From Tribonema minus (lineage: Eukaryota > Sar > Xanthophyceae > Tribonematales > Tribonemataceae): 64,000 nucleotides of DNA. The notes under the pieces are model-generated. The model searched no databases and had not been told where the DNA came from. It was given only the letters and a program-made list of their open reading frames with translations. The stretch spans positions 1 through 64,000 of the forward strand of contig JAFCMP010000157.1 in assembly GCA_017506865.1 (NCBI GenBank), read 5' to 3'. The translations under genes were made by a program, and so were the position numbers. Below, piece by piece: positions 5,063-64,000 of the stretch (position 1 is its first letter; each line of letters opens with the position of its first letter).

Positions 5063-8000
5063 ATGAGGGCAATGCGGCTGATCATCGCCTTGCTCATCGT
5101 GCTCGCAATGGTGACACGCGGGGCGTACGCGCGCAAAGGTATGACACATGGTCACTATCCTCAACTCAATATATATACTACACGGCTCAGCATGAGCCTG
5201 AGTGAGTGCCAGCTGTATTATCATAGTGGTTTCACAGATACCGTTAAATGCGCGGCTCTCCAACTGAATGAAAGAAAACATGTTACATGATGATCTCGCA
5301 AGGTGGCACGTCACTTCAACTTGTTCAGCTGCGTGAAGAGCTTCATCATGAGGTGCTCAGGCTGCAGTGCGCCACGGCGTGCGCGCTGCGCGTGGTCACA
5401 TGCGCCCAGATGCATAGGTATGTAGCGCGCCATCACATACATACCCCTGTAAGCTACGCGACGCCGCGAGCGACAGGGCGCCGCGCACGTTTGACGCGGC
5501 GGTCTTACCTGCTGACTGAGCACTGCCACCTGCAGCAAATTCCAACAAGTTGAACTTGAAGTTACAACAGTGCTCATCAGTGCCGCATCGGCGCCAAGCG
5601 ACCTTAGCGGTTTTGTTCCGATAAGGCGCCCGCTGTTAAAGTCGGCTGATGACTCTGACCCTTGCTCTGATTTGCGCGCCGCATCTCACAGTCTTGTCCG
5701 CAAGCGTGCGCTCTCCCGCCAACTTCAACTCAGTACAGCACCTCGTTAATGTTTTCATACACCTCGCCACCTCTCACGCCGCGCGCAATTCAAATCACCC
5801 GTGCTGCAGCCCCCAAGGAGTCCCCCGAGGACGTCCCCGTCATGGACGCTATTAGGCCCTTTCTGGCGGCGAGTCTCGAGCTGGGGAGCGTCGCCCTTGA
5901 GTTTGGCGACGAGACGCTCGCCGTGTGGGCCGTCTACCGCCGCGCCGAGCGCTTCTTCATGTTGAACAAGCAGCAGGAGAGCGAAGCGGAGAGGGTCGCG
6001 TGGGACCTGTGGCGCAGGGGGCGCAGGTGGTGGGGGGGGGTTTCCCCCTGTGCAGCACCGCTCAGCAGGGCGGCGCATCTCAGGGCGGCTTGGTGCGCGG
6101 GGCAGGTGCGCGCAGTGAATCTCAAAATTGTGGTTCATAGACCACTAGGATTCTGTTTCAAGTTTGCATGTGCATGGCCTTGCACAAACTTCAAACTTTG
6201 GTTGAAGCACACACGCCAAGGGTTGAGTGCGTTCACTCTTTGTGGCTGCGCCCGTGATGCACATGGTGGCACAAGGCTCACTGCACTATGCTCATCGCCA
6301 ACGAAACATTTTCGCGCTTCGAGCTGATGTGCGCTTTGTTGAAGTTGAAGTTCACCAATGAGAGGCACGTCACTTCTGCTGTTCTCAGTGCACGCAGGCG
6401 TCGCCCTGCGGGGCTACATGCGCGTCAGGCGCGTGGCGCACAGGACGTGGCACGAGTACGGCAGGCTGCGCAGCGTGCTCGCAGCACGCTTCAGCATGCT
6501 GGCCGAGGTGAGCCACCTGCAGCGAGTATGCATTGTACTTCAACCTGAAGTATATGTTCACGGCGTATATGACGGTGCGCGAGTACGGCAGGCTGCGCAG
6601 CGTGCTTGCAGCACGCTTCAGCATGTTGACCAAGGTGAGACACCTGCAGCGAGTATGTGTGTACTTCATTTTGAAGTATATGTACTTAAATTAAATATTA
6701 GTATATGTACATACACAAGTGGCGTCCCAAGCTCGTTAACGCCGAAAGGCGTGGCAGCGAATGCGGCTGGTTTGGTGGGTGGGCTGGGCTGCAGGGCTTG
6801 CAGGAGCTAGCACCAGCGGCCCCCAGGTGATGCCAGCGTGCGTAGCCCCTTCGAGAGAACTTCAAACGTGTGGTGGTGTCTCGGAAGCCCTGGCTGGCGT
6901 GCGGAGGAGGGACAGGGAGCGGCTTGGCGTGCTTGGAGAGCAAGCGGAGTCGGCTGCACGCCACGGCACCAACCACAAGTTACTCGCAGCGGTAAATGGC
7001 AATATCTTGTCAGGCTTGCAGCCTGCGGTGAGCCGTGACCTCGCTCATCAAGGAGGCGATGCTTTACTTAGTTATATAGCCTTTCTCTCTAGCGTCAGCG
7101 CCTGGCGCCCAGTGACTCCCTCTGCTTATCTCTATGATATCGGGGTTCACGTAGATAGCCACAATCTCCAGTTCAGGGCCCATCATGGTGACCTTGGCCT
7201 GCATGAAAACTTTGAGATGGAGTCTGCGTGGAGCTGGGTGGCCCTTAGAAGGGTCTGTCTGTGGGGGGAGAGTCTTGCAGCTTTGTTTGGTATCCCTGCT
7301 AGTGTGTGGGGGACAGTCGCTTGCGGATGCTTTGTTGGGGGTGATATGGGAGGCCCGGTGAACCACCGTCCCGCTCATCAAGGAGGCGATGCTTTGCTTA
7401 GTTATATAGCCTTTCTTTCTAGCGTCAGCGCCTGGCGCCCAGTGACTCCCTCTGCTTATCTTTATGATATCGGGGTTCACGTAGATAGCCACAATCTCCA
7501 GTTCAGGGCCCATTATGGTGACCTTGGCCTGCATGAAAACTTTGAGATGGAGTCTGCGTGGAGCTGGGTGGCCCTAAGACGGGTCTGTCTGTGGGGGGAG
7601 AGTCTTGTAGCTTTGTTTGGTATCCCTGCTAGTATGTGGGGGACAGTCGCTTGCGGGTGCTTTGTTGGGGGTGATGTGGGGGGCGGGGTGTGGCGTGCAA
7701 GCTTTGCATGCTACATCCAAGAGTGAGAACAAGGCGACACACCTACAACATGGCATTTCCACAGCCACAAGTGGAATATAATAAAAGTACATACGCAGGA
7801 TGCACAGCGTGCTCGCAGCACGCTTCAGCATGCTGGCCGAGGTGAGTCACCTGCAGCGAGTATGTATTGTACTTCAACCTGAAGTTTATGTTCACGGCGT
7901 ATAGGACGGTGCGCGAGTACGGCAGGCTGCGCAGCGTGCTTGCAGCACGCTTCAGCATGTTGACCAAGGTGAGACACCTGCAGCGCGTATGTATGTACTT

Positions 8001-20498: not shown

Positions 20499-23400
20499 CT
20501 AGATGAGGCTCTGCGCGAACGACGGCAGCTGCACGCTGCGCGGCGGCTGCGGCGACAGCGTATCGCCGAAAACGGCCGTGCCGCTGAGCGACGCCGCGGA
20601 CGCGTGTTGGCTCGTCGCGCCAGCTGCAGCGGCAGCAGCAGCAGCAGCGCTCAGCTCCGCGGGCGGCGCCTGCGGCGGCGGCAGCGCGGCGCCGCACACC
20701 GGCGCGGCGTCGACGTTGTAGCCCATGGCGCCCATGCCCCTGCGTGCGGAGCGTCGGTGATGATGAAGTTGAAGTTGAAGTTGGACAGCTGTTTTTCGAT
20801 GCATCCTTAGCGTGCGCGGAAGTTCGCTGCGCTTTTTTGCACGAAGATTTCGATCGCTTCGGGTGTTTCGCGTTCAAATGTAGTGTAGGGCTATGGGGCT
20901 ATTAGGTGTGGAACGACAGGCGCGTTGCGAGCGCAGGCTGTGCTACCCTACCTACCCCCTGTGACAAACGCTGATCAGAACCAATCACAGCGCGTCCGAC
21001 AACCTCGATCACATGCACACACTTGAAGTACACACATGCGCGGCTGTACATATGTACATACTTGCGCGTCCTTGCCACCAGTGCTCAGCTAGGGCTAGCG
21101 CACGCCCCGTGTCATGACATACTTCATAGCATCCTACAGCTACCCCATACTTTGAAGTAAGTCGGCTCTCACCGTGTCATGACATTGAGGCTTACGCGCA
21201 CATACCCCCTGCGCTGCAAGCGCGTCCTACAGGTGTTGCCCCTGCTCTCAAGTAACTAGCTCTCAGTTTTCCATAACATGACCCGTATACGTGCTGCGTC
21301 GCTCAGCCCTTCCCCATGAGTCACCCAGCTGTCACCTTTGGTCGAGGGTCGCTCATTTATCACCAGGTCATGACGTTAAGGCTACCGCGCACTCGCCCCC
21401 TGCGTTGCACGCGCGTCACCTCTAGAACTTTCATCACCTCGTCATACAGTCGAGGCTGCTGCGCTACGCGAGCAAGCAAGTCGGCTCTCACCGTGTCATA
21501 CCATCAAGGCTGATGCGCACGCGCCCCCTGTGCTGCACGCGCGTCCTACAGCTCTTGCCCTTGCTTTCACGTGAGTCGGCTAAGTAGCTCGGCTCTTAAC
21601 GCGTCTTGCAGGTCACTCAGCACTTGCCGTGTCATAGCATTACGGTTCACGCGTATGCGCCTGTTGCCCCTACACGCAAGCAGCTCCGCTCTCACCTCGC
21701 CACAACAGCCACCGCCCCTATCTGCGAGTAGGTAAGTCAGCCAAGTAAGTCGGTTCTCACCGTGTCTCGTACGTAACTCATCTCTCACCTTGTCATGACA
21801 GTGAGGCTCACGCGCACGCGCCCCCTGCGCTGCACGCGCGTCACCTCGCGCCCCTCCGACCGCGCCACCAGCTTGGGGTCGAAGAACTCGGGGTACGCGC
21901 CCGCTATCCACCCCCGCACGCGTTGCAGTATCGACGACGCCTGAAACGGAATTGCAATGTCGAGGTGAAAATGATTTCTTCAGTTTGTCGGCGAGTTCTC
22001 AGCGCCTGCAGCTCCCCACACGCGCACGCGCCGCGGTGCTGAAGTTGCTTCTGAAAGTGCAAGTTCTTACTGTTGAAGTAAGGTGTAGTGCGCACGAAAG
22101 GACTCTGGGTACGTGCCCGCGATCCACCCACGCACGCGCTGCAGTATCGACGATGCCTGAAACGTCAACGAGATAAACAGGATGTTGAGGTGAAGTTGAT
22201 TTCAGTCCTGTTATCGAGTTCTTCAAGCCTGCGACTCCGCACCCGTGCACGCGCCGAGGTGCTGAAGTTGCTTCTGAAAGCAAGTTCAGTTGAAAGGGCT
22301 CGGGGTACGCGCCCGCGATCGACCCGCGCGCGCGCTGCAGTGTCGGAGGGCGCCCTGAAACATCAACACGGTGTTGAGGTGAAGTTATTTTCAGTCCTGT
22401 TGTTGAGGTCTTAGTGCACGCTCTCCAACTGCGAACGCGCTGCAGCATCCAGGGTGTCTGAAGACGGCGGTGGTCAAGGGAAGGGCTGGAATTGGGAGTT
22501 CCCATACGTGCTCGACACAACCTATGCAGACCCTGCGCCGACCAACACACAGGTGAGGAAGCCTAGGCTGTTGGCGTAACAAAAACAAGAAAAAACGTGT
22601 GCTGGCGCGAATCAGATACCTTGCCAATGGTGATTGATTCGACATGTGACACAAACTTCAACTTCAATGACTTGTGCATCAAGAGTTTATTTGGAGACCA
22701 AGGAGTTGTGCATTCTGATCTGCTGCATTGCACTGGTGTGCTAGCACAGCAAGAAAATTCATATACTTCGAAATTGACAGAAAATGTGCAACTGAAGTCA
22801 TTTTCAGTCCCTTTTGTGGAGTTCTTCGCGCCCGCGATCCACCCGCGCGCACGCGCTTGTGGTATAGAGGACGCCTGGCAACACAATGTTGAAGTGAAGG
22901 GTATGTTCAGTCCTTCGGCGTTCAGCCGCAGCAGCGACAGTATTGACGCAGTAGCGCCCATCCAAGCCTGAACTACTGCGCTCGCGCTTGGCCTAACCCT
23001 AACCCTAGCTGACACCCCTGTCGTCGCCAACCATATAAAGGCGTATCTCTATCATCTGCAGTGTCCATCCATGCATCCACGCTTCGATAGGAGGCACTTT
23101 CGGCCCTCGCCACCTCCCCCCCCGCACACACAAACACACATGCACACACAATGCCTCACTATCGGCCGGCGCACATGTACAGACCTGCTGTGCGCGCGCC
23201 GACCAGCAAACGCAAGTATTCGAGCACTGACACACCGGCGGCGGTATGAGCACTGCCCTCACACTGGAGCGCGCGCGAACGCGCGTCAGCAACAGCCGCC
23301 AGAACCTTGTTAATAAGAATTTTGATCATCGCACCAATGCAGGAGCGCCCCCCTACAACACCCCCATACACGCCGCCCTCACCAAGGGCGCGTACATGTA

Positions 23401-26208: not shown

Positions 26209-27259
26209 ATGAAGGCTGTCTCGGCGCTGCTCGCACTGGGATCCTCTTCCCTGGTACTGCAAGGAGCAAGGGGCTTCGCAGCTGTGGGTGGCGCACATTT
26301 GGCGCGTCAGGTACAGCATTTCGGATTCTAATATCTTCTGACAGACGGCAGGATCTTGTTGGTCTCAAGTCCAAAACCTTTATCAACTAGTCGTGCAGCC
26401 TCGCAATCTTATGCAACAAATACGTCTGCGTCAAGTGGACCATTAACACCAGCGGCGCGTCACGAGAAGTGTTTAGTTCCACCACGTAGTTGCAGCCTTG
26501 CACGCGATCTTGCTCAACATTAGGGTAGCTGAGGCAATGCAGTCAATCAGAATGCGACCTCGGAGATAGCAGCTCAACAGCTGCATCGACATGAGCTGTC
26601 TGCTGTTATGATGCGATGGTTCTGCTGGATAAATGAAGCAGCATCAACACCTACACTTCCACGAAACGATACTGTAGCTAAGATAAATACTGGCAACCCT
26701 CACCTCACAGCGGCTTGGGCGTAGGTTCCACCCATCTCTTGCTGGTGGCGCACGTTGGCTTTATACTATAATTGCCCTGTAGCATCTGATCATAGCACTT
26801 GCCCCAGTTCTTTTTTAAAGTAGGTACAGTGGGTGTTGTCCTATTAGGCATTCAATCATACTGCATGTGGCCATCTTCCCTTGGGCAGTCGGCAGCATTT
26901 ATTCGCACGCATGTACGCAATGAAAATGTTGCGTTGCACTTGGAGCCAGCAATTGCAGAAGAAAGCTGATCGAGCTGTTTGTACGACCACGCTGAACAAA
27001 TTGGCTGCTGAAAGCCCAGTTGCTGCAAGCGCAGCAGCTTCGCTGTTCCTGGCGCAGGAATTGCAGACTCGAACAGTACATGCTTCAACTACGCATTGCC
27101 GGTTGCTTGATAACTGCAAGAAGTGACTGAGAGCGCTCGCTTTCTCACTGGCTGCAGAGGCACAAGCTCTCGCTTCCTCACTGCAGCAGTGGCACCTATG
27201 ACCTGTCATATTCGCGCATACACAAATACACACACACACACTCACACACACACACACAC

Positions 27260-44300: not shown

Positions 44301-47300
44301 CATGTCGGGCATGGGGCACGCGACCACCTGCTCAGGGTTGAAGTTCGAGTCAAAACTAGGTTAGAATTAGCATCAACGACCTGCGGGTTTAGCGTCTCCG
44401 TCAGCGGCCTATCGCTCGCGTGCACGTGGAACCCCGCCGCCGACATGTCCGGCATGGGGCGCGCGACCACCTGCACAGGGTTGAAGTTTTAGTCAGACCT
44501 GGGTTAGGGGTTTCCATCAGGAGCTAGTTGATCGTGCACAGGGTTGAACTTGAGTCAGAGCTAGGGTTAGGGTTAGTATAAGGGGTCTGTCGCTGGCGTG
44601 CACGCAGAAACCCACCGCCAAGATGTTAGGCATGGGGCGCGCGACCACCTGCGTAGCATGGAAGTTGAAGTATGAGCTAAGGGCTAGGGTTAGCATCGGC
44701 ACCCTGCATCAGGGGCCTGTTGCTGGCATACATGTTTAGCCTCGCCACCATATGTTGGGCAAGGGGCGAGCGACTACGGGCGTAGGGTTGAAGTTGGAGT
44801 CAGGGCTAGGGGGTCAGAGCCAGCATCAACGCCTTAGGCTGATGCTGATTGGCGATCTGACCTGTGTGGCAGCGAGCGAACCCCAACCCTACATGACTCC
44901 TAACCCTAACCTCAACCCTAACCCTGGCCCTCTGAAAAGAGTAAGCCGGATTGTTATCCTTGGCGTGATTTGACACCTGACTCGATATAGCTGCAACAGC
45001 CCTTACCATTTTTATCAGTGGGTATCCGCAAGCTTGGCAACCTGCTGTAGCCCTGAACCAACCGTAAGCTTGGCTAACCCATCTCACCACAAGCGCGCTT
45101 GTGAACTCCATGTCCAATTCGTGAAACCATCTCAAACCTACCTGGAACAGTCCTAACCCAAAGTGTGAATGTTACCTCCTGGGCAGCGAGTGCAGCTGTA
45201 TTCTCAAACCTAGACTTGCTAGCCCTGACCCTAGTTGCAATACCTACGTACCTCTTTAGCAGCCAGCGCGGCTGCCTCCTCGATTGCGATGCGCGCCTTA
45301 AGCCTCTCCACCTTGACGTCCCCCCTGCTCAAGCGGACATTAAGCCGATGTGTCAACAGCTAGCACCTGGAGCATGCGCCGATTGCAGGTGTGCACATGC
45401 GTACAGTGTTGAAGTAGGATTGTTGAAGTAGGGGCGTCACCGGCATGCAGTTTGCTCTGCCTCTACGATAGCGATGCGCGCCTTGGGCCTCTCCCACTTG
45501 ACGTCCCCCCTGCTCAAACAGACATACAGACGATGAGTCAACAGCTGGCGCCTGAGCACACGCAGGTTGTAGGTGTGCAGGTATGCACATATGTACCATG
45601 TTGAAGTAGGGGCGTCACCGCGATTCGCGCCTTGAACCTCTTCACCTCGACCTTCCCCCAGCTCAAGCGACTAGGCAACAGGAGCTAGCGCCTGAGCATA
45701 TGCTGCTGAGCTAGTCGTGCGGCTTGCACATGACCACAAAGTGGGTGAGTGAGAGAGTGAGTCATCTGGTCATTTGCCTGTATTGCAGACACGCAGACAA
45801 CAGCTGACGCCTGAGCACTGCTGCACTGCTGATCTATACAGGTTTGCACATGCGTTTAGTGTTAAAGTTGGGGCGTCACCGGCACCCACTTCGCTCTTGA
45901 GTTGCTAGGCGCAGGCGGTGCCACCAGCTCCGTAAACAGCATCGATCAGCGAGCAACACGAAGCACTGGCCCCACAAGCAACTGAATGAGTGAGTAAGTG
46001 AGTCAATCTGAGGCACTTGTCTTGAACCGCCAGGCGCAGCGCTACCAGCTGCGTCATAACTAATGAGCGGCATCAAGCACTGGGCTTTCAAGTAACTGCG
46101 TGAGCAAGTATTTGAGTGAGTCATGTGATGTTTTTGCATCACCGAGCGCAGTGCCGCAAGCTCTGTCAGCATCACAAGTAATCGCATTATCAGGCACTGA
46201 CCCTCGAAGTGTTTGAGTGAATGAGTGACTCATCTGAATCACCGGTCGTGCGCCACCGGCGTCGTCACTACCTGACGAGCAATATCAACAAGCACTACTT
46301 GTTATCTGATGCGTGAACAAGTGAGTGAGTAAGTGAGTCACCTGTCTTGCGTTGCCAGGCGCGGCGCCACCGGCTCTGTGAGTGTCATCAGACCGCTCGC
46401 CTCCGCGCGATGGCAGAACCCCGCCGCCGCCAGCCGCGAATAGTCTGGCATGGGAAGGGCCCTGCTCAGCAGCAAAAGGCATAGGGTCAGTCATCCACCA
46501 ACACTGTCTCGACGTTTTGTTTCCATTGCAGCAGCGCCGCGCTGCTTGACCCTACCCCCATGCCCATGATTCAAATTCAACTCCAAACATACGTGCCTTC
46601 ATCTCCTCCAGCTCACGCTCCTTCAGTGCGTATCGCCGCCGCGCGCCCGCGCGCTTGCGCTACACTGCCTGCCTGCCCTCACTGCAAACCTCAACTTCAA
46701 CTTCAACAGACTCACTTGACAGTGTGCGCCTTCATCTCCTCCAGCTTGCGCTCCGCAGTGCTCAGCGGCGCGGCATGCACGCACAAAAGCACCACGCATA
46801 CGTACCCCCACTGTGTGGACTTCAACTTCAAGTTCAATAACTTACTTGACGGGGTGCGCCTTCATCTCCTCCAGCTCGCGCTCCTCGGTGCTCAGCGGCG
46901 CGGCATGCACGCACGAACGCCACTAAAGCCTACCCACCCTTACTGTATCAAACTTCATCTCCTTCAGCTCTTGCGCCTCGTGCTCAGCGGCGCGGCGTGC
47001 GCGTACGAGCGCTGCTTTGTGTACTTCAACTTCAACATCAGGAGACGCGGCGTACACGCATCAACGCTACCTAATTAGTGATTACCACCCCATAGTGTCC
47101 TTCAAAAACATCTTCAACTTCAAAAGACTCACTTGACGGGGTGCGCCTTCATCTCCTCCAGGTCGCGCTCCTCAGTGCTCAATGGCGCGGCGTGCGCGTA
47201 CGAGCGCTGCTTCGTGTGCAGCTTGGGGCTCACGGGCTGCGTCGGTCCGCGCAGCTGCGCCCTCTTGGCGGCGGCGGCGCTGCTGCTGCTGCCGATGGAG

Positions 47301-50300
47301 CCCTGGGACGCCAGCAGCTGAGGCGGGGTCATGCAGAAGTTCAAATGTGAAGTTGTTGAAGTTCAAATGTGAAGTGCAGCGCGAAGACAGAGCCCTGGGA
47401 CGCCAGCAGCTGAGGTGGGGTCATGCGGGGAAGTTCAAATGTGAAGATGTGATGTGCACACATGCGAAGTGGTGTGTGACGTGTCCGCAAGGCATAAACG
47501 GCGTCGCTGTCGCATGCACCGGCAGGCACAGGTACCAGCGCGAACAACCCCTGCCCTAATCGCAAGACCCCTGGCTAACCCTAACCCTAGGTGGTGCTCG
47601 ACTGCCAGGCTTGCACTGCCGCGGGCAGCTGCAGAGACGCGCAGAAATCGAAGGAGAGCAGAGGCTTTAGGCCACTTTCCTTGTAGAAGTGGTGTGTATC
47701 AGATGCTGTAGCCCAAGGCAAAGCTCAAGTTGTCATTGTTGGCGCCGGCGGGTGGCCCGCGCATGCGCGCGTCGGTGGCAAACTTCAAGAACCTTGGGTC
47801 CAGCAACATGTTGAAGCACATGTTCAGTACCTGGATACGCGTTGACATGTGTGCAATGCGGCTCTGTAAGCTGGCGTGCTGTACACAAGCCTCTCACTTT
47901 CAATTGCGTAACGCAAAGCTCGCTTTTCCAACGTTGACCATGTACGCAGGTCATGGCTTGATTCACGTCGGCATGTATGAAATGCATACATACTTCTCGC
48001 GAGCTGTACATAAGCATTACAGATCCGAGTGCACCACACAAAGCTCGCATTTGCCTGGTGCCGCAGTCATTACACTTACAAGTGCATCACACAAAGCTCA
48101 CATTCTCATTGCTGGCACCGGCGGGTGGCCCGCGCAAGCGCGCGTCCGTCGCAAACTTGGGCTCCTTAGGGACCGTCAGCGGCTTGCTCTGGAAATCCTT
48201 GCGGAAAACGCCAACATCTCCACACATGCCCATGGCCTTCCTGCTCAATTGCATGTGACAGTAGTGGGTTGGGAGTTGCGGTGAGCAAGGCGTTTGCAGC
48301 GCTGGAAAGGTGAACTGTGCGTGCTCTGCGGCAACGCCATTGGTCGCCGTAAACAGCGGTGATCCGTTGTTGCAGCATGAGATTAATGCGATCCGCCTTG
48401 TTGCGCGTGTGTATGGTTGTCGGCGCTGGCATGCGGTGCGTGCATGCCCCTACCAGCGGTTTGTATGTTCGACTTGTTGCTGCGCAAGAAGGAGCTGGTA
48501 GGTATGTTCGACTTGTTGCTGCGCAAGAAGGAGCAGAGCACAAGAGGCAGACTACAGTAGGCGCGATGCTCTCTTGTTGCATGGCAGCGCCTTGAACTTG
48601 TAGGTACCCATTAGGATGAGCCGAGCAAGACGGCAGGTCTCTGATCAATGCTCACTTGCTGAAAGGCAGCAAATGAAACTTGCAGTTGTACAGAAGCAGG
48701 GGCAGAGTAAAGTACAAGTGGCAGATGCCGGAGCAACGCCTGCGTGTTAAATTGCAGCACCTTGAACCTGTACATCACTACAGTTCAAGTGGCAGTTTAC
48801 TGGAGCAGCGCTCACTTGTTGAATGGCAGCGCCTTGAACTTGTAGTCGTGCACGGAGAGGGAGTACATGAGGCGGATTACGGAGCATGGCTTACTTGTTG
48901 ACTGGCAGCGCATTCAACTTGTAAACGAGCAGCAGAGTAAAGTTCAAGTTCACTGAGCACTGCTCACTTGTTGAACGGCAGCGCCTTGAACTTGTAGTCG
49001 CATAGAAGGACGGGGGGGCAGAGTACTGTTGAAGTGGCACCGCATTGGGCAGAGCAAAATTCAAGTGGCAGGTTACTGAGCGCTGCTCACTTGTTGAACG
49101 GCAGCGCCTTGAACTTGTAGTTGCGCAGCTCCTCCGCCTCCAGCGCGACCTTCTCTGCGTAGCTCATCGGCAGCTTCCGTTTCTGCGCCCAAGACGAGAG
49201 ATACGTCAAAGCATCCATCAGCATACCGCTTCAGGTGTGTAATGCCTGCTGTCATCGCATTTGGGCTGGGGGGGTGCTCTTGCGCGAGCTGAGAGGTAGG
49301 GTCCAGCTTCTAGGCGTAGCTCATCGGTAGCTTCCGTTTCTGCGCACATGAAGCTGAGGTGCATCAAAGGGGCCATCAGCATACCGCGTCAAGTGTGTAA
49401 TGGCATGCTGTTGGCACATGTGGGCCGGGGGGCTGCTCTTGCGTGAGCTTAGGGTTAGGGTTACGCTTACTGATGGAGCTCACTGGCAGCTTCCGTTTCT
49501 GCACGCCAAGTGACAGAGGGTTAGGGTTAGCTAACCCTAAGTGACAGAGGTGCCCCTGGCGTATATCCGTTCAGGGGCGTGCTCCACGATGACGTAGAAG
49601 TGTACAATCAGTAATCATCAACGCTGCACAGGCCATCCAACCCTCACTGTGACCCCCAGCGATTCATGTGCAGCAAGCAGGCCAAGTCTGAACTCTGTGA
49701 CAGTGTCATCTCCTGCCCCAAGGCTGACTTCAGCATGAAGGTCAGGGCTAGGGTTATCCTCGCTTGCTTGAGGTTAGGGTTAGATCAAGTTGGAGGTTTG
49801 CTTGAGGTTAGGGTTAGGTTAAGTCGAAGTTAGTGTTAGGAAACCCTAGGTCAGAAACGCCGCCATGATCAGTTCTCTAAGCTCAAACAGTGGACTCCAT
49901 GGTGGACAAGCAGAGCAAGAAGCTGACGCTGACCCCAACCTACAGGCAGGTGCTGCGCGCAGTGCGTAACCCTAAACATAACCCTAATCAGGGTGTCATC
50001 CAAACCCTGACGCCTGATGCAAAATCTAAATTGTCGACACCAATGCTCTAACTTCAAATGATGTCAACTTCAAATACGCACACGCGTGCGTCGGTCACAC
50101 TTGCGCACTCCGCTGCAGCAGCTGCCATCCAGTAGACACGAGGCGGCGGCCGCTGCTGGTCGGGCATTACGTCAGAAAACCCCCTTTACCGCAGTAGCAG
50201 TGTCTTTGTCGGCGCTGACACTCGGATTTCGAGTGAGGTCAACTTCAAATGCGCGCGCGCAGCGCACACGCTGCCTCGCGCACCATATTGTTGTTAAGGG

Positions 50301-53300
50301 GCAGGCCGCTGCCCGCGCCGTGCAGGCTGAACGCTCAAACTCCAAACGAAATCTCAAAATTCAAGTGAAAGCAACTTCAACTGCACGTACAGGCCCTGCC
50401 GGTTACCGTGTTGGTCTCCTGGGGTCGTTACAGCAGGAAACCCACGATGACGCAGCAGCAGTGTTTCTGTCGGTGCTGACACGCAAACTTCAAGTGATGT
50501 CAACTTCAAGCGTGCACGCAACACTCGCGCACCGTGTTGTTCTTGAGGGGCAGGCCGCTGCCTGCGCCGTGCAGGTTGAACGCGACGGGGACGGTGAGCT
50601 TGGGCACATACGGCTCCGCGCGCGCGGGCGCAGCAGCAGCAGCAGCGCTCAGCGCCTCGGGCTCCGTGGGGCGCCGCCCGAGTCTCTGGTTCTGCGGCAG
50701 CGCGCGGCGCGAGGGGCGCAGAATGAGGTTTTTCTTAAGTGATGACATTGAAGATGGGGACATGTGCCAGCCCCAAATCTTTACGGCAGACAGCCGAGTC
50801 TCTGGTTCTGCGGCAGCGCGCGCGGGCGCGGGGCGCAGAATGAGTTTGTTGAATCGATTGATAACAAGCGCTGACACGCCGCCGCTGCCGACGCTAACCC
50901 TTGAGTAACTGCCCGCCACCACCGCTGAAACAATGACGGACACTGCAGTACCCGCCGTCTTGAAGTGGGCAGATGTGGGGTTGGTGAGCGGCTTGTCGCT
51001 GTGCGTATGCACGCCGACGAGCGCTGACGCGCCGCCGCTGCTAACCCTAACCCTAATAATCAGCCCAAGACGGCTGCTGCCGCTCCGACGCGCACTGACT
51101 CACCGTCTTGAAGTTGGGAGAGGTGGGGTTGGTGAGCGGCTTGTCACTGTGCGTGTGCACGCCCACGAGCGCTGACACGCCGCCGCTGCCGGCGCCCGCG
51201 GGAGCCCTCACGCCCGCCTCGTTCCTCACACGCGCTACCTCGTTGCGTCTCCGCATGGCCCTGCGTCAGATTGGCACACCGCATTATTGGGCAAGGCTTA
51301 GGGTGAGGATGGTGAATGTTGGTGCTATTCCATACTGGCGTTAGGGTTGAAGTTACCCATGCCGGGGCAGGGTTTGAAATTACCCTCGTTGCGCACGCGC
51401 GCCACCTCATTACGCCTCCGCATGGCCCTGCACCAGACAGTGGCGTATGGACGCATTGTAATAAAATTCTACATAATACCTCAATGGCGCATGTAGTCCT
51501 TTGATTTTACGTGCATTATCGGTGGGGTTGGGTGAGTGCTGAATCAGTCAGCGTTCCTCACGCACGCCACCTCATTTCGTCTTTGCATGGCCCCGCGTCA
51601 GATCAAGAATCCATCATGGGCGAGGGTTAAAACTAAGGTGTAGAACGCTACCGCGGTTTGGGTCAGCAGCCTTTTAGGTTTGAAGTTATCCTCGTGCGTC
51701 ACGCGCGCCATCTCGTTGCATCTCTACATGGCCCGGCGTCAGATTGGGCCATTACTGGTCGAGGGTTAGGGTTACCGTGGATGGTGCATGTTCCTCAACA
51801 TGTGGGTCAGGGGTGGGATTGCGTTTGAAGTTTGTTTAGAGGTACCCTTGTGCCTCACGCGCGCCACTCCGTTGCGTCTCCGCATGGCCCTGTGACCGAC
51901 GATGACAGATGGATAGATTGTGTTCTGCAGTTAGTCACTGCATCTACAAGCGCCACCCTCTAAACTCACTCACAAACTCACCCGCGATGTAGACGCGCTG
52001 CCCCCCTCTTGAGTCAGTCAAGAGGGCATCTCGACTCACTCACTCACTTCATCTGTTTGCATATCAGCGCCGCCCTCTCGTGTCAGGAGTCCATCTCGAC
52101 TCACTCACTCACTCGCATCTGTTGACGTATGAGCGCTGCCCTCTCGAGTCATCTTGACTCACTCACTCACTCACTCACTTCATGTATTCGCGTATGAGCG
52201 CTGCCTTTCTCGCTGGTCTCCGGCAAGACCCTCTCTCTCATTCACTCACTCACTTCATCTGTTCGCGTATAAGCGCCGTCCTCTCGAGTCAAGAGGCCAC
52301 ATCAACTCACTCACTCACTCGATCACCCAATCTGTTCACGTATGCGCGCCGCCCTTTTGAGTCAAGAGGCGTCTCGACTCACTGACTCACTCATCTCAAT
52401 CACTCACTCACTCACTCACTTCATCTGTTCGCGTATGAGCGCTGCCCTCTTGAGCTCCGCCTCCTCGCTGGTCTCCGGCAGCAGCGCGCGCCTGCCGCTC
52501 TCTCCCGAGCCTGCAATGCCCCAACGACGCGGTGTGTCAACGTCACCACAGAAAAAAATTATGGACATGATGGTGCACGAGATGTAATCATCTGCTGTGA
52601 GTGGGGCGTTGCAAGGTTGAGCTTGCTGTACTTGAAGTTGCACGCGCGGTGTGAACGTCACCACAAAAGCAAATACAAGACATGTCAACAATGAAGCAGT
52701 AGAGGTGATGCGATGGACGCGAGCAATGGGTGTGGACTGGGCAGCCAACGCTTTCCATGGTGTCAACGCAAATGCGCGAACGCAGGGTGCGTCCGTTTTA
52801 CACAGAGATTTGCTTCACTTGAAGTCAAAGTTGAAGTGGAGCCAGCTTCAGAGCCTGGAATGCGCCGAATGCCCCAGCGGAATGAGCATCACCACAATAG
52901 CGGTGGACGTGGTGCGCCAAGTAGATGGGATCATTTACTTCGAGTGGGGCGTTTCAAATTTGAGCAGGCGGGCCGTGTCATTTGATGGCCGCTCGCTGCA
53001 GACAGCAGTACATAAAACTTCATGATGAAGAGACTTCATTCACCTGTGCTGGCGGCGCCGCCATGCTGCCTGTTGGCACTGGCGATCGAGCCTGCACACA
53101 ACAAGAAAAAAGGCAAGCAGAGGAGTCTTGTGATTACCATGATCATGCAGCTTTATGCAACATTGAGCTTCGCGGCCGTGTGCTGCAACGTACGACTGGA
53201 TATGCAGGTTATGACAAGGGCACCGCTGCCTTAGATGCACGCACGGGCAGCATTCGTGTCCAGCAACAAACGCCATAGACAGAGTCTTACAGTCTGAGTC

Positions 53301-56557: not shown

Positions 56558-59500
56558 ATGAGCACCGCTCGTTGCAATGGCCGCTGGGCAGAACTTTTGT
56601 TCGGCAAGCTGGCCGCGAAGGCCAAGGGAAAGGACGAGAGAGACGAGGAGGGCGAGCTTGGTGCGTCCAAGCACAAGAAAGAGACGCCTTCCAATAAGAC
56701 CAAGGTGAGCCTCGAGCGACAGTACATGTGTTGACCTGTTGAAGGTGTGCACCTAAACGTTAGCTCTGCTCCGAGAAGCCAGCGGACTGCGAGCTTTGTT
56801 TTGGCGAGGCGAAACACACTAGCTCAATGCTCAAGGCTCCCCTCGAGCTGTTTGATCGTACTTGGCACCGTCAATTATATCAGCGGTTCCGGCAGTAGTA
56901 CTTCTTCTGTGCACATGCGCATGCAGCCGATGATCGGCATTCAGCTGGACACTGTGTCCTTTGCATGACATGCAGTCATGCATACCGCCAAGCCCATCAC
57001 ATGGCGCAACGTGAGCTGCCGCTCACTGGTGATGCCATTCATGATGCTGGTACATCAGGTTGATGATACTTCCATATGATACATGCCGTTCTGAGTTGTC
57101 TGAAATTTTATGTGCCGCAAGGCGCCATGCTCACTTCATGTACTTGCAATTTGAACTTCTGCGCAGCGTTCGCTAGCTGTTGGCATGGCCTCTCCTGCTA
57201 ATAATATACAGGCGTTCGCATACACGTGCTGTAGTGCGTGCCATTCTGATAGCACCACTGCGCGCTGATGTTGGTCTCACACTTATACTATGCACGTGGA
57301 GGAAGTAGAGATTGTTACTTCAAGCGGTGCAAAAGTACAAGTGATTCACCTACTTAGTACGCTCTCGAGAGGCCCACACCCCACGAGTCCGCAAGAACAC
57401 TCACAATACTCTCTGCAACGATGCGAATGTGTTGATGAAGTACGTGTGTCCCAACCCACACAGCTGGTTCGACTGAGCAGTCTTGAGCGCCGCTGTGCTG
57501 AGCGCTGCTGTGCTGCATCATAACCGAAGCGCCATGGCGTGCGCATCTACGTGTGCTACTCATGCGCGTCCGCAGTACTGCAACACCCGCTGGCACATAC
57601 TGCCCCCGCTGTTGTCAGCCGGGTTATGCTGGCCTCACGGGTGCTGAGCGCTGACGATGCAGCCCCAGTCAGGATGGTCACTGGTTCAATGCACTCTCCA
57701 ATTCAAAATCCCCAGTAGCTGAGACCGAGTATTGTGCACTTCAGGGTACTTGAGATGGACTACACACGTCCCGCACACAAGCACCGCAGCTGTACCGCCG
57801 TCAGGGTTGGTTGGAATTATCGGTGCCTCTGGAAGTTCACATCACTAATGTCTGGGTGCCACGCGCTTTGAGTCCGCAAGCCTCTAAATAAGCACAGAGC
57901 TGCGGCAGCATCGCTCAGTCACAAAAGCGCATCAGCGCTCCGCAACAGGCAACAACTCGTTGAGTACTGACTGCCTTCGCACCTGAGCACTGCTGCTGCT
58001 GCTGCGAGAAGTACTTGCGCTTCTGAGCGCTGCTGTCATCTTGCCGACCCGCTGCACGCAAGCGAGCCGCTGCGCCCTCTGAAGCAATCATTGAGCAGTG
58101 CTGCGCACCGACTGCGCGCAGGAGCGCTGGAGGTGGAGGTTAGGGTTAGGGTTAGGGTTGAGGGTAGGGGTAGGGTCAGGGTAGGGTTGGTATTAGGGGC
58201 CGATTCTCGTTTGCTTCTCTCTCTGTCGCACAGCGGCCATTTCTCAGTGTCCCTTCTATGCTGATCCTCTTGTTGAGCAATAATGCAGCTTATTACCTAC
58301 ATACCCATCGCACCATGCGTCCTCCGCTACTGCTGACCCTGACCCTACTGGTGCCGACCTTCCTAGCTTTACATGCCACTTCCGTGTCCGCGTGCGCACT
58401 GGTTCGTTCGTGAAGGCGCAACAGTGCTCAGCCGTGCCCGCATACGTACGCCTGTCACACATATCGCCGTTTTGTCCATTCCTGTGACAACGGGGGCAAG
58501 CGGCCCTCCCACGCCAGATACCTTCGCAGCAACATTGCTCAGTCGTGCTTGCATACCTACCGTATGCTCGTCTCATCCGCACTAATGTGTGCGCGAGCGC
58601 AACGGACTAATGCGCACGACGGCTCGCGTGACCCGTGCCGAGGGCCAAGGTTACCTCGTCACTCAGTAATCCGCAGCTGTCATTTCTGGGGGCACCCGAT
58701 CTCCCTCACCTCTGTACGCATACACTAGCGCTGAACCTCACCCCCCTGCCCTAACCTTGAACGCTCGTCGGTGACGGCCTTGCATGCAGCCACAGCAGGG
58801 GGCAAGGACGGGCACACTTCAGTTGCCACTCGACTCGGGCGCTTACGTTAAAACCCTCCACCCTCATCGGCGCTTGCCATCACAGCTCTAACAAGGGACT
58901 GCACACCAAGCTTCTGGGCGCGCGCCGCGACCTCGGCGTAACCCTAATGATAACCTAACCCTAACCCAAGTCCACCCCTAACCCCTTGAGTGCCCCCCCC
59001 CCCGCACGCAACTGCAGCCGAGCAAGGGCCTGCGCGCCACGATCCTGGGCAGCGGCGCGCGCCGCGACCCGGCCGACGCCTGCTGCAACACAGTGCTCAG
59101 CACCTACACACAACCTTCAAGCCTAGTTTCAACCCTAACCCCCCAATCCTGACCCCCGGCAGTGCTCGTCCTCCGCACGTAACCGCAGCCGGTCAAGGGC
59201 CTGCGCGCCAAGATCCTGGGTGGCGGCACGCGCCACGACCCCCTCAACGTGACCATACTTATAACACCACCCTACACCCTACCCCCCTAACCCCAACTGC
59301 AACCCTCCCCCCCGCACGTAACAGCAGCCGGGCAAGGGCCCGCGCGCCAAGATCCTGGGCGGCGCGCGCCGCGACCCCGCCGACATAACCCTAACCGCAA
59401 TTCAATCTCTAACCCCAACCCCCTAACCCTCATAAATGCTTGCTCCTGTCCGTAACCGCAGCCGGGCAAGGGCCTGCGCGCCAAGATCCTGGGCGGCGGC

Positions 59501-62500
59501 GCGCGCCGCGACCCCGCCGCCGCCGCCGACGCCTGCGGCGACACTGCGCTCAGCCCCTACACACAACTTTAAACCCTAATTTGGACCCTAGCCCCCAATT
59601 CTAACCCCCGGCATTGCTGGTCCCTCGCACGTAACCGCAGTCAGGCAAGGGCCTGCGCGCCAAGATCCTGGGCGGCGGCGCGCGCCGCGACGCCGCTGAC
59701 GCCGACGCCTGCGGCGACACCGCGTTCAGCCCCCGGTCCAACGCGCGCACCGGCAGCTTCAGCAGCGACAGCGGCAGCCACTTCAACTTCAACATCAGCA
59801 CGCCCACCAGCGACGGCAGCCTGGACTTTGGCAGCGGCGGCGGCGGCGGCAGCGGCGGCAGCGGCTGCGGCGGCGGCGCGGCGGCGTGGTCGCACAGCGC
59901 GCACCCTGCTCTGACGCCGCGCAGCGCGACGCGGGACGCGCTGCTCAACCCGAATATGTGAGTTGAAGTTGAAGTTGAAGTTGCAGCGACAGTTGGGCAG
60001 GTAGGTGTTGCACACGGTACGCCCTGCTCAATCCCACATGTGAGTTGATGTGATCTTGCCCCTACAGTACATCCCCTAGAATTCTTGTAGTGTAGGTGGG
60101 TGTGCCTGACAGCGTGACACGCACGGCACCCTTATTTACGCCGTTCTCTGTGCCGCTCTGCCTCGCGACTCAGACTCAGCCCGCCCAGCAGCGTCAATCA
60201 ACGCAACAACGATGTGACACTAATGGTGCTGTTGTTTATGTTGTTATCAACGTCTTCTCCCCGCGACTCTGCCTCGCGACTCAGAGACTCAGCACCCCCA
60301 GCAGTGTCAATTCAATGAACCGACACTCACGGCACCATTACTTGTGCCGTTCTCCCGTGACTCTGCCGTGACTCTGCCTCGCGACTCACACTCAGCCCGC
60401 CCAGCAGCGTCAAGTCGACGCAACACCCTTTTGGCACTGCCCCCCCCCCCCCCCCATGTATCAACGCTGTTCTCCCTGCGACTCTGCCTCGCCACTCAGA
60501 GACGCAGCCCCCCCTAGCAGCGTCAGCTTGATGAACCAACACTCCCGGCACCATTTATCAACGCTGTTCTCCCCGCGACTCTGCCTCGCGACTCGGACTC
60601 AGCCCACCCAGCCGCATCAAGTCAACGCAACACCATTGTGACACTGATGGTGCTGATGATCTCCCCGCCATTGCCGCAGTCAACGCAACACCGTTGTGAC
60701 ACTGACGGCATCATTTATTTACGCTGTCCTCCCGCGACTCTGCCCCGCGACTCAGGCTCAGCCTGCCCAGCAGCGTCAAGTCAATGCAACACCATTGTGG
60801 CACTGACGTTACTGTTATCAATGCCGTTCTCCCCGCCACTGCCTCGGTCAACGCATTACCTTGGTGACATGTATGGTGCTGCTGCTGTTAATGCCTCCCA
60901 TCTATCAACACTGTTCTCCCCGCCACTCTGCATTGCGACTCAGACTCAGCCCGCCCAGCAGCGTCAAGTCGACGCCGGCGCGCCGCGGCAGCGTCAAGTG
61001 CCTCGAGCGCGACCAGCGCGCGCAGGAGCAGCAGCAGCAGCACCAGCGCGAGCGCCGCCACTCGCGCAGGGTGTCCGTGCGCGCGCGCGACCTGTCCAAG
61101 CTCACGCCGCTGCGCATCCTCGGCACCGGCGGCTTCGGCGCCGCCGTCCTTGTGGAGGACAGGTGGGCGATGAAGTTTGATTTGAAGTTTGAGTTGCAGT
61201 TAGTATTTATAAGCGCAGGGTGTCCGTGCGCTCGCGCGACCTGTCCAACCTCACGCCGCTGCACATCCTCGGCACCGGCGGCTTCGGCAGCACCGTTTTG
61301 GTAGAGGACAGGTGCGCATGAGGGCTATAGATCTTGGCTGCGGTCAGGGCTTGAGTTGTTGTGCGGGGTGGGCTTCGACCTAGTGCAGGATGTCCGAGAG
61401 CTGCAGCGCTCACAAGCTGCACCGTAACCGTAGCCCTCTGCTGGCGCAAGCGCAGCAAAAGTGACGGCGCGCGCGCTTGGCCCTGAGGGCCTCAGTGATC
61501 AGTGCTCACATGCCGCACCCTAGCCCTAACCTCGACCCCCAACCTCCCAGTGCGAACCCGGCACGATTTTTGTGCGCAGGGTCTCAGTGCGCAGCATTGC
61601 TAACCCTGATTTCGACCGTTGTTGAGTAAACACTTGCGCGGACGCCGCAGGCGCGACAGCACGCGTTTCATGCTCAGGAGCTCAGCACTCGTGCGTCGTG
61701 CGTCACACTGTGGACCTCATCTCAACTCTACCCTTAGTCCTAATCCTACTGTTGTGCTAACTGTAATCCTCGCCGCAGACGCGACGACGCGCGCTTTGCG
61801 CTGAGGGCACCAGCGCTCAGCACTCGTGTCACACCCCAGCCCCAACCCTAACCCTACTGCTTGTGCTAACCCTAAGCTCAACTCTAACCCTTGCCGCAGA
61901 CGCGACGGAGCGCGCTTCGTGCTCAAGGCACCAGTGCTCAACACTCACATAACACCCCAACCCTGATCCTACCCCTACACCTTAGAGACCTAACCCTAAC
62001 TCAACTCTGATCCTTGCCGCAGACGTGACGGCGCGCGCTTTGTGCTCAAGGCCGTGCGGAAGGCGCGCCTGCAGGCAAACGAGACCTCCGCGGCGACCGC
62101 GCAGACTGAGAGGCGCATCCTGGAGCAGGTAGCTACCCCTAACTCTCACCCTAGCCCTAACCCCAACACTAGCCTACCAAAAAAAGCAACCCTAGTGTTA
62201 GGGCGAACGAGACCTCCGCAGCGACCGCACAGACGGAGAGGCGCATTCTCGAGCAGGTATTGAACCCCATACCGTCGCTATCATTTTCAGCCTGCGTCAA
62301 ATATGAAACCTAACCCTAGCGTCAGGGCGAACGAGACCTCCGCGGCGACCGTGCACACGGAGAGGCGCGTTCTCGAGCAGGTCAGCCAGCAATATCTAAC
62401 CCTAAACCCTGGCCCTCGTCTAACCCTGAGGCCAAGAGGCGCATTTTGGAGCAGGTAGCCAACCCTCCCTTATTTTGACCTTAGCCCTAGCCAAACCTTG

Positions 62501-64000
62501 TACCTGGCCATAGCGTTAGGGCGGTTAGCGTTAGGGTTAGGGTTAGGGTTAGGGTCCGCGGCGACCGCACAGACAGAGAGGCGCATTCTCGAGCAGGTCA
62601 GCGAGCGAACCCTAATTCTCACCCGTGACCCTAGCCCTCATCTAAGCCTAAGGCTAGCCCTAACATTAGGGCCAATGAGACCTCCGCAGCGACCGCGCAG
62701 ACTGAGAGGCGCGTTCTCGAACAGGTCAGCGCGCGAACTCTACCCTTTACCCTAACCCTAACACTAGCCTACACAAAAAACGCAACCCTAGTGCTAGGGC
62801 GAGCGAGACCTGCGCGGTGACCGAGCAGACTGAGAGGCGCATTCCTGGAGCAGGTAGCTAACCCTAACCCGAACTCTAAGCCTAGCCCTAACCGAATCTT
62901 ATACCTAGCACTAGCGTTAGGGCGACCGCAGAGGCAGAGAGGCAATTTTTTTCAAACAACGAGCAGGTCAGCGAGCTAACCCTAGACCTATCTCTGACCC
63001 CGAATTCCAGCCTAACCCTACGAGTAACCCTAGTGTTAGGGCCAACGCGAGACCTCCGTGGCGACCGCACAGACAGAGCGGCGCATCCTGGAGCACGTCA
63101 GCGAACTTATTTCTCACCTTAAACCTAGCCCTAGCGCTAGCCTAATTTTGAAAGTAGCCCTAGCCATAGGGCCAATGAGGCTTGTGCGGCGACCGCGCAA
63201 ACCAAGAGGCGCATCTTGGAGCAGGTAGCTAACACAAACTCTCAATGTAGCCGTAGCCAAAACTTATGCCTGGCCCTACCATTCGGGCTGATGAGACCTT
63301 CGCGGCGATTGCGCAGACAGAGAGGCAGGTCAGCAAGCTGCCTCACCTGAGCCCCTAGCTCTAGCGCTAGCCTGATTCTGAAAGTAGCCCTAGCGTTAGG
63401 GCCAACGAGGCTTGTGCGGTGACCGCACAGACAGAGAGGTACATCCTGGAGCAGGTAGCTAACCCCTTGCATGTAGCCCTAGCCACACCTTGAACCGAGC
63501 CCTTGCTTAGGTTGACCTCTGTGGCCAGCGCACAGACTGAGAGGCGCATCCTGGAAGCAGGTAGCTAACGCTAACCCTCACTCTGAACTTAGCCCTAGCC
63601 AAACCTTAACCTAGCCCTGAGTAGCGCCAGGGCAAACGAGACTTCCGCGGCGACCGTGCAGACAGAGAGGCGCGTCCTGGCGCAGGTCAAAGCGCTAACC
63701 CTAACTTCAACCCTGACCATACCCTGAGCGTACCCTTATTTTTGCCCCAAGCCCTACCCCCTGCCGTGCGCGCGCACATCTCGCACCCGCTCAAAGTGGC
63801 CTTCCACGGCGCTATGCAGGACAAGTCCAACGTGTACTTCCTGCTGGCGTACTACCCCTAACCCTAAGTTTCTAACCCTTACTCCCTAACCCTGCCCCCT
63901 GCGTGCACGCGCAGATCTCGCACCCGCTCATCGTGGCGTACTGGCGCCATGCAGGACAAGTCCAACGTGTACCCTAACCTAAACCTAACCTGAACCCTAC
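56558..64000 (+). CDS. AGC-family protein kinase (PKG/PKA-like), 5' part
   Basis: Four plus-strand exons join in phase: 56558-56704, 59641-59957, 60950-61162 and 62023-62128, giving residues 1-261. The next exon is represented only by echoes at the window edge. The N-terminus is charged (GKLAAKAKGKDERDEEGEL). Exon 2 encodes a Ser/Gly-rich linker (KGLRAKILGGGARR, SDGSLDFGSGG). Exon 3 leads from a Gln/Arg-rich helix into the kinase domain: DLSKLTPLRILGTGGFG, whose glycine loop is at residues 213-218. Exon 4 carries the catalytic lysine (FVLKAVRK, Lys235) and the helix-C region QTERRILEQ (Glu255 likely). The edge echoes read ISHPLKVAFHGAMQDKSNVY, the following beta strands. The motif order fits AGC kinases, nearest by eye to cyclic-nucleotide-dependent kinases. 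Any cyclic-nucleotide domain, activation loop or C-terminal tail lies outside the window. Confidence 0.83.
56705..59010 (+). other. First intron of the kinase gene; no recognised exon
   Basis: This holds telomere-like repeats at about 58138-58200 and several TGAGCRCTGCTG words (about 57490, 57643, 57985, 58025). A short duplication lies at 58430-58580 (gcccgcatacgtacgcctgt against gcttgcatacctaccgtatg). A plus frame at 57290-57520 starts HVEEVEIVTSSGAKVQV, but I cannot link it in phase or to a family. Confidence 0.45.
59010..59640 (+). repeat. 5' echoes of kinase exon 2
   Basis: Four copies of the acceptor plus exon start (aaccgcagccgggcaagggc, then ctgcgcgccaagatcctggg) lie at about 59015-59095, 59180-59250, 59315-59385 and 59450-59560. 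The last is about 100 bp long and reads KGLRAKILGGGARRDPAAA. The true exon follows at 59641. Each copy is preceded by CCCTAA-type words. Confidence 0.92.
60115..60945 (+). repeat. 5' echoes of kinase exon 3
   Basis: At least six copies of ccgcgactctgcctcgcgac, then tcagactcagcccgcccagc and agcgtcaagtcgacg, precede the true acceptor. They lie at about 60155-60195, 60255-60315, 60360-60422, 60475-60535, 60570-60630 and 60725-60790. Shorter remnants fill the gaps with caacgcaacaccattgtgac. Confidence 0.9.
61205..61315 (+). repeat. 3' echo of kinase exon 3, glycine loop preserved
   Basis: About 100 bp repeats the exon end with roughly ten substitutions and an intact frame: DLSNLTPLHILGTGGFG, then STVLVEDR and a gtgcg donor. 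A possible acceptor (taagcgcag) lies at its start, so use as an alternative exon cannot be excluded. The pattern otherwise matches the neighbouring echoes. Confidence 0.88.
61640..61945 (+). repeat. 5' echoes of kinase exon 4
   Basis: Copies of the acceptor plus exon start (ccgcagacgcgacggagcgc, then gctttgtgctcaaggc) occur at about 61645-61685, 61770-61825 and 61893-61945. Telomere-like CCCTAA words lie between them. Confidence 0.9.
62205..63690 (+). repeat. Thirteen 3' echoes of kinase exon 4 in a CCCTAR-rich array
   Basis: Copies of the exon 4 end, coding NETSAATAQTERRILEQ, lie at about 62205-62257, 62328-62381, 62428-62456, 62558-62598, 62685-62726, 62805-62854, 62920-62967, 63046-63098, 63175-63226, 63290-63330, 63410-63455, 63515-63562 and 63640-63687. 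Nearly all keep gt straight after the exon-derived part (gtagct or gtcagc). The spacing is about 100-130 bp, with CCCTAA/CCCTAG words as filler. Confidence 0.93.
63765..64000 (+). repeat. 5' echoes of the next kinase exon, at the window edge
   Basis: Two copies (about 63768-63858 and 63908-63975) share atctcgcacccgctcaWMgt, then tgcaggacaagtccaacgtg. The first reads ISHPLKVAFHGAMQDKSN through VYFLLAYY but has cac in place of the acceptor cag, and runs into CCCTAA. The second has an acceptor, gcgcag, but a disrupted frame. The true exon is expected beyond 64000. Confidence 0.85.

What the first reader, a model, noticed from the sequence alone, without database searches (positions are those of the whole stretch)
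6398..64000. Splice-junction echoes: introns apparently built by serial tandem duplication of their own exon boundaries
In all four recognised genes and in the unrecognised 5-11 kb gene, exons are flanked by ladders of partial, decaying copies of their own junctions. Copies of acceptor plus exon start lie only upstream. Copies of exon end plus donor lie only downstream. This is seen for about 27 exons on both strands. It is what repeated tandem duplication across a splice junction would leave if selection keeps one junction and lets the others decay. It offers a mechanism for intron lengthening that differs from introner elements or transposon insertion, and it fills introns with decoy splice sites. 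I know of no described system with this pattern across whole genes, but I could not search.
Basis: partly seen in the sequence, partly recalled or inferred. Interest (0 to 1): 0.93.

Follow-up and report, generated by a model that had tools for sequence, protein, structure and literature searches.

The report
Introns built from exon-edge copies
In this alga-like genome, introns of several genes are largely filled with decayed tandem copies of the neighbouring exon's own edge, so the introns seem to have grown outward from their splice sites; similar copies sit beside some tRNA genes, so splicing itself is probably not the cause.

Summary
Four spliced genes (27 exons modelled) carry 113 direct copies of exon edges around 25 of 27 exons. 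Of 51 upstream copies, 48 span the acceptor side and none contains the donor; of 62 downstream copies, 55 span the exon end (52 donors, 3 gene ends) and none contains the acceptor. Exon cores elsewhere in the same 158-Mb genome agree. Of 40 local direct-repeat arrays inside these genes, 37 contain exactly one exon edge; 17.1 kb taken as intergenic has one array. Substitutions show that the exon is the constrained copy, that echoes decay neutrally, and that echoes left the exon at different times. Splice dinucleotides are lost at about the background rate.

The pattern is not confined to splice junctions: 6 of 30 tRNA loci carry one-sided echoes of the tRNA 5' end; 16 histone loci carry none. 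Selection explains the direction; concentration at edges does not follow from uniform duplication unless introns began at about 150 bp or less. Five literature searches on the phenomenon found no description. Species unknown; no RNA evidence.

The parts
20499..26039 (-). Gene A, B9-domain (ciliary basal body) protein, exons A1-A5: 25908-26039, 25548-25675, 24111-24306, 21789-21940, 20499-20739
27625..36180 (+). Gene B, CREG beta-barrel/DUF2470 protein, exons B1-B7: 27625-27774, 29521-29689, 30675-30775, 32021-32116, 33775-33879, 34710-34781, 36010-36180
38301..52510 (-). Gene C, no Pfam hit (TPX2-like only by eye, recalled), exons Ca-Cl: 52420-52510, 51104-51260, 50533-50691, 49091-49182, 48102-48253 (start uncertain), 47133-47317, 46342-46461, 45252-45324, 44070-44210, 42126-42262, 40350-40420, 38301-38464 (end uncertain)
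59641..62128 (+). Gene D, protein kinase, exons D2-D4: 59641-59957, 60944-61162, 62023-62128; upstream start not modelled; continues past the window in L112
20376..20539 (-). echo of the A5 stop-codon edge (not a splice site)
21155..21847 (-). A4 donor echoes
21882..22914 (-). A4 acceptor echoes
23373..24188 (-). A3 donor echoes
24208..24883 (-). A3 acceptor echoes
25312..25588 (-). A2 donor echo
27213..27665 (+). B1 start side echo (inferred acceptor, contains the ATG)
27727..28677 (+). B1 donor echoes
29018..29557 (+). B2 acceptor echoes
29640..29884 (+). B2 donor echo
31358..32048 (+). B4 acceptor echoes
32072..32798 (+). B4 donor echoes; a genome search with the exon found matches only here
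33345..33845 (+). B5 acceptor echoes
34752..35010 (+). B6 donor echoes
35697..36063 (+). B7 acceptor echo
40215..40371 (-). Ck donor echo
40400..40936 (-). Ck acceptor echoes
41968..42171 (-). Cj donor echo
42194..43085 (-). Cj acceptor echoes; with the Ci donor array they make up nearly the whole Ci-Cj intron
43188..44134 (-). Ci donor echoes
44132..44831 (-). Ci acceptor echoes
45272..45881 (-). Ch acceptor echoes
46595..47217 (-). Cf donor echoes
47298..47471 (-). Cf acceptor echo
47719..48158 (-). Ce donor echo
48536..49127 (-). Cd donor echoes
49150..49502 (-). Cd acceptor echoes
50167..50583 (-). Cc donor echo
50678..50850 (-). Cc acceptor echo
50864..51195 (-). Cb donor echoes
51217..51892 (-). 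Cb acceptor echoes
51956..52454 (-). Ca donor echoes
58892..59733 (+). D2 acceptor echoes
60114..60975 (+). D3 acceptor echoes
61064..61321 (+). D3 donor echo
61759..62052 (+). D4 acceptor echoes
62074..63724 (+). D4 donor echoes (12 copies)
63746..63972 (+). acceptor echoes of the next kinase exon (K5), which lies beyond the window

Best explanation
Introns of these genes have grown at their ends. A segment of about 140 bp (middle half 116-179 bp) that straddles an exon edge is duplicated in tandem (shown by the anatomy). The stretch that stays joined to the rest of the exon remains the real edge because selection rejects the other outcomes; the partial copy is left in the intron, upstream for starts and downstream for ends, and decays neutrally (shown). 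The exon-bearing unit has been copied again at different times, mostly in the same register, so arrays of 1 to 12 copies build up; in-register unequal exchange or repeated template slippage is the likely machinery (inferred). The spliceosome presumably ignores the copied sites because only the true sites pair across a short exon (inferred). The same edge rule acts at some tRNA genes, so the duplication process is probably general DNA damage or repair read through selection, not splicing. Why copies concentrate at edges rather than spreading through introns and intergenic DNA is not explained by selection alone; an edge-localised source, or growth from introns first about 150 bp long or less, is needed.
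For: Direction: all 103 copies that pass an edge point the predicted way; 10 more do not pass an edge by 4 nt. Outside the window, 53 tubulin-family and kinesin exon cores give 24 UP hits with the 5' edge, 26 DN with the 3' edge, 10 reaching neither, none contrary; kinase exons K5 and K6 beside the window agree. Anchoring: 37 of 40 arrays inside genes A-D contain exactly one modelled edge. Exonic breakpoints stay within about 10 nt in most arrays; Cj UP, D2 UP, A3 DN, Ci DN and A4 DN also hold clearly different ones. Units repeat with their intron part. Copies neutral, parent constrained: codon-position counts 85/71/111 private to a copy, 4/2/23 where the parent stands alone, 23/21/86 shared by some but not all copies, as expected if copies left the parent at different times. 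GT kept in 40 of 52 donor copies and AG in 40 of 48, against 0.73 and 0.78 expected from neighbouring identity. tRNA edges: 6 of 30 loci, 11 hits, all 5' edge upstream.
Against: No transcript data. 16 histone loci show no edge echo; one (L103) has a downstream copy of the whole core, a neighbouring histone gene. Most kinesin cores fetched (the 30 best of 132 matches, which favours long exons) show none. tRNA echoes are all at the 5' side and about 4 are independent. Age does not rise with distance. Free local repeats exist in 11 of 30 tRNA loci and 3 of 16 histone loci, which weakens the claim that duplications arise only at edges. Two hits lie inside one core, L046. Breakpoints show only a weak excess of two motifs, so no mechanism is identified.
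Confidence: 0.72

Rival explanations
1. Uniform short tandem duplication everywhere, with selection alone producing the pattern: exonic and whole-exon duplications are purged, edge-straddling ones survive in one orientation, and introns were short when it began, so nearly all intron DNA descends from edges.
For: Explains direction with no special mechanism; with ancestral introns of 120-150 bp, 1.7-3.5 detectable free arrays are expected per 35 anchored, near the 3 of 40 seen, one of which belongs to an exon outside the window; tRNA echoes and free arrays occur too.
Against: At 300 bp 15 free arrays are expected and at 500 bp 32, while about half of the present noncoding DNA in these genes is not in recognisable arrays. 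By my arithmetic, the rate implied at edges (37 arrays over about 50 edges x 120 placements) predicts about 50 detectable arrays in the 17.1 kb taken as intergenic; 1 was found. Sensitivity for free arrays was taken as 19 of 37 from a masking control and may be too high.
Confidence: 0.35
2. Selection ratchet: unequal exchange between exon edge and echo can add a unit harmlessly, but removing one often pulls decayed sequence into the exon and is purged, so arrays grow only beside selected sequence.
For: Accounts for edges of any selected element, tRNA included, for mostly constant register and for mixed ages.
Against: A birth-death estimate (mine, no call) gives only a two- to threefold excess for arrays of 2-4 copies; histone loci show no edge echo.
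Confidence: 0.25
3. The copies are alternative or mutually exclusive exons.
For: Most copies keep GT or AG (40 of 52; 40 of 48).
Against: No copy has both splice sites (0 of 113); 28 of 39 indels break frame; private changes are nearly flat over codon positions.
Confidence: 0.05
4. Introner-like or transposon insertions at splice sites.
For: The genome has dispersed repeats.
Against: Each array repeats its own exon; a genome search with the B4 exon found matches only in its own array (one exon tested); only 10 of 184 window pairs are farther than 3 kb apart, and I did not examine those 10.
Confidence: 0.02
5. Assembly artefact.
For: Tandem repeats are hard to assemble; reads were not available.
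Against: Copies are 3-32% diverged from the parent, and the pattern recurs on many contigs.
Confidence: 0.02

Closest known systems
Short tandem duplications from break repair (CST/Pol alpha fill-in; PMC8355091, abstract and section list seen)
   Same: Tandem duplication of short DNA stretches as a general mutation class.
   Different: There single events at breaks; here arrays of up to 12 units filling introns and anchored on exon or tRNA edges.
Novel introns by tandem duplication of coding sequence with a proto-splice site (Drosophila; PMC2891723, abstract and section list seen)
   Same: A duplicated exonic stretch becomes intronic and the open frame is kept.
   Different: That makes a new intron; here an existing intron is lengthened at both ends.
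Tandem exon duplication and mutually exclusive exons (recalled)
   Same: Tandem copies of exon sequence in introns.
   Different: Here every copy is partial, one-sided and decaying.
Introner elements (PMC9860276, search listing with start of abstract)
   Same: Account for intron sequence in some eukaryotes.
   Different: Introners are copies of one element inserted in many genes; the echoes here match their own exon.
Haematococcus lacustris tandem repeat patterns (PMC7617258, section 3.5 and find passages seen)
   Same: About 150-Mb alga genome, AACCCT telomere motif, 47.3% repeats, most of the interspersed ones short and organised in tandem over tens of kb.
   Different: The passages seen do not relate the repeats to exon edges; identity of our genome with this species is a guess.

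Membership tests
Tandem exon duplication / mutually exclusive exons | copies contain a whole exon with both splice sites | tested here: not met
   0 of 113 copies carry both edges
Tandem exon duplication / mutually exclusive exons | copies stay coding | tested here: not met
   28 of 39 indels not a multiple of three; private changes 85/71/111
Introner elements | same element in many introns | tested here: not met
   B4 exon search found only its own array genome-wide (one exon tested)
Tandem (minisatellite-like) arrays | head-to-tail units, same orientation, spacing of one unit | tested here: met
   174 direct against 0 inverted pairs within 3 kb; unit median 140 bp, n=113
Break-repair short tandem duplication | end-joining or fill-in signature at breakpoints of fresh duplications | tested here: inconclusive
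   breakpoints listed, no clear signature seen by eye; weak motif excess
Intron gain by exon duplication | a new intron absent from relatives | not testable with these tools
   no related genome held

The most novel reading that the evidence does not exclude
The genome has an edge-localised growth zone: new sequence is added to introns almost only at exon edges, by repeated copying of the exon-bearing unit, so an intron is a record of past versions of its flanking exon edges, donor history from one side and acceptor history from the other.
Probability: 0.4. Interest if true: 0.85.

Novelty: new variant of a known kind. Interest (0 to 1): 0.77.

Why it matters
It offers a concrete route by which introns lengthen without transposons, leaves fossils of exon edges inside introns, and poses a sharp test for how a spliceosome finds the true site among many near-identical decoys. 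Because each array keeps a constrained parent beside neutral copies, it also gives an internal clock for neutral mutation at individual exon edges. The tRNA cases point to a general rule: duplication seen through selection leaves one-sided echoes at the edge of indispensable sequence.

Tried and rejected
Splice-specific origin: weakened by tRNA echoes. Breakpoint motif: ACTTCAA is 20-fold and AACCCTA 15-fold over base-composition expectation in noncoding DNA, but within 25 nt of breakpoints CTTCAA is 8 of 113 against 5% and TAACCC 12 of 113 against 4% at random intronic places, so not a site-specific signal. Age ladder: not found. Selection on copied splice sites, for or against: not found. 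Generic edge of any gene: histone loci negative. Haplotype comparison: C90 and C179 look collinear (kinase matches), with 1353 and 1666 bp between two matched exons of a histone-fold gene (coordinates), but the DNA could not be fetched. Among loci held, L109/L110 look allelic (98.2% over 1.6 kb) and show no arrays. In one search exon K5 was first placed on an echo by mistake; one search corrects it, with its end still one base short. My notes say 24 of 27 exons and 35 of 38 arrays; the calls give 25 of 27 and 37 of 40. One search's '40 of 55' for GT includes 3 gene ends that have no donor; one search gives 40 of 52. Rfam found nothing at gathering scores in the window. Papers of which I saw passages without use for the argument: PMC10400597, PMC12702839, PMC6330051.
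Full report
What was checked. The window is bases 1-64000 of contig C157 in an unnamed 158-Mb, 554-contig genome that can be searched but has no relatives held. It is eukaryotic: spliced genes, GC about 57%, TTAGGG-type repeats. A flagellate green alga such as Haematococcus lacustris would fit (B9-domain gene; published size 151 Mb and telomere motif AACCCT, PMC7617258, passages seen), but the species was not established.

Anatomy. I built exon models by hand for four genes, 27 exons. Splice sites are GT/AG except at gene starts and ends and the unfound start of Ce; the frame stays open across all joins except Cd-Ce. Gene C has no Pfam hit. The 23 introns between modelled exons have a median of 1049 bp. 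Each exon with 100 nt on either side was compared with 2.6 kb on either side. There are 113 direct copies around 25 of 27 exons. Upstream: 51 copies, 48 passing the acceptor side by at least 4 nt, 3 not, 0 with the donor. Downstream: 62 copies, 55 passing the exon end (52 donors and 3 gene ends), 7 not, 0 with the acceptor. Ten inverted hits fall at A5, B7, D2 and after D4, in simple or telomere-like sequence. Controls with regions of other genes give 26 hits in 135 searches, all from five exons with low-complexity stretches.

Arrays. Clustering all local direct repeats gives 47 arrays: 40 within the gene spans, of which 37 contain exactly one modelled edge (one of them the A5 stop-codon edge, one the inferred acceptor side of B1). 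The three others are 38669-39024 and 39281-39618, in one intron of gene C and perhaps transposon-related, and 63746-63972, which belongs to the next kinase exon beyond the window. Anchored arrays cover 49%, 38%, 49% and 66% of the noncoding DNA within genes A, B, C and D. The intron between Ci and Cj (1807 bp) is almost wholly a donor array plus an acceptor array. In five stretches that I took as intergenic (17.1 kb; one may hold an unmodelled gene) there is one array. Masking exons and exon-like parts still leaves 19 of 37 anchored arrays visible, so arrays without exon sequence would often have been seen.

Rest of the genome. I tested 53 loci of 3-4 kb, several overlapping: 23 of the tubulin family and the 30 best of 132 kinesin matches. 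16 loci have hits: 31 UP (24 with the 5' edge of the core, 7 inner), 29 DN (26 with the 3' edge, 3 inner), none contrary; 2 hits inside one core (L046) and 7 inverted. Core ends are profile-match ends, not modelled splice sites, and some hits overlap. Most kinesin cores have none.

Which copy is real and how the copies evolve. Parent and copies differ by 11% in exon parts and 21% in intron parts; copies differ from each other by 17% and 28%. Sites where the parent stands alone: 4 of 391, 2 of 390 and 23 of 392 at codon positions 1, 2, 3. Changes private to one copy: 85 of 1404, 71 of 1401, 111 of 1410. Changes shared by some but not all copies: 23, 21, 86. So the parent is under coding constraint, copies are not, and copies carry different past states of the parent. 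In the exon parts 28 of 39 indels break the frame. GT survives in 40 of 52 donor copies (0.77; neighbouring identity squared 0.73) and AG in 40 of 48 acceptor copies (0.83; 0.78). Many decoys look usable: 41 of 54 donors and 39 of 50 acceptors score at or above the weakest real site. Divergence does not rise with distance (rho 0.12, p 0.23). Counts pool related copies, so they are not independent events.

Is it splicing? I fetched 30 of the 60 tRNA matches. Six (L066, L073, L074, L086, L093, L094; about four independent, since L073/L086 and L093/L094 share flanks) have upstream tandem units that align to the first 28-49 nt of the tRNA and not its 3' end: 11 hits, none downstream. Local repeats not touching the tRNA occur in 11 of 30 loci. 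Sixteen histone loci (of 52 matches) have no edge echo; one has a whole-core copy that is a neighbouring histone gene, and 3 have free repeats. The edge rule thus extends beyond splice sites but is patchy.

Mechanism. Direction needs nothing special: a tandem duplication straddling an edge leaves one copy joined to the rest of the exon, and selection keeps that one. Concentration at edges is the open point. If duplications fell uniformly and introns were 120-150 bp at the start, 1.7-3.5 free arrays per 35 anchored would be detected, near what is seen; at 300 bp 15, at 500 bp 32. The scarcity of arrays in the stretches taken as intergenic argues for an edge- or gene-linked source, but tRNA and histone flanks show that free arrays are not absent elsewhere. 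A ratchet in which unequal exchange can add units freely but cannot remove them without damaging the exon would help, by my estimate (no call) two- to threefold. I cannot separate these without relatives or haplotypes.

Literature. Five searches on the phenomenon and two on Haematococcus listed no paper that by title or start of abstract describes exon-edge echoes filling introns. Nearest are Drosophila introns gained by tandem duplication (PMC2891723, abstract and section list), short tandem duplications by fill-in synthesis (PMC8355091, abstract and section list), and the description of short tandemly organised repeats in H. lacustris (PMC7617258, section 3.5 and passages). The library holds open-licence papers only, so absence there is weak evidence.

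Verdict. A real, strong and, as far as I could search, undescribed architecture.

Noticed in passing
introns of genes A-D: Telomere-type TAACCC/GGGTTA words are about five times denser in these introns (2.53 per kb) than in the stretches taken as intergenic (0.47 per kb).
   Followed up: partly
noncoding DNA of the window: The 7-mer ACTTCAA/TTGAAGT occurs 95 times against 4.7 expected from base composition; function unknown.
   Followed up: partly
7042-7690 and 38669-39618: Tandem units that share phrases by eye and may be a dispersed repeat family rather than exon echoes.
   Followed up: no
G000 C90:1235689-1237281 and C179:591183-593100: Apparent allelic copies of a histone-fold gene with 1353 and 1666 bp between two matched exons; could show recent gain or loss of echoes.
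   Followed up: partly
L066-L095: Several tRNA loci share a dispersed repeat in their flanks, mostly 3', which suggests an element that inserts beside tRNA genes.
   Followed up: no
16620-17885, minus strand: Long open frame rich in Gly, Ala and Pro; no Pfam hit for 422 residues as typed and no local arrays there.
   Followed up: partly
53381-54531: An array of nine repeat pairs before a frame ending LLSDEDEPDNDGARPLPPRRSPL, perhaps acceptor echoes of an unmodelled exon.
   Followed up: no
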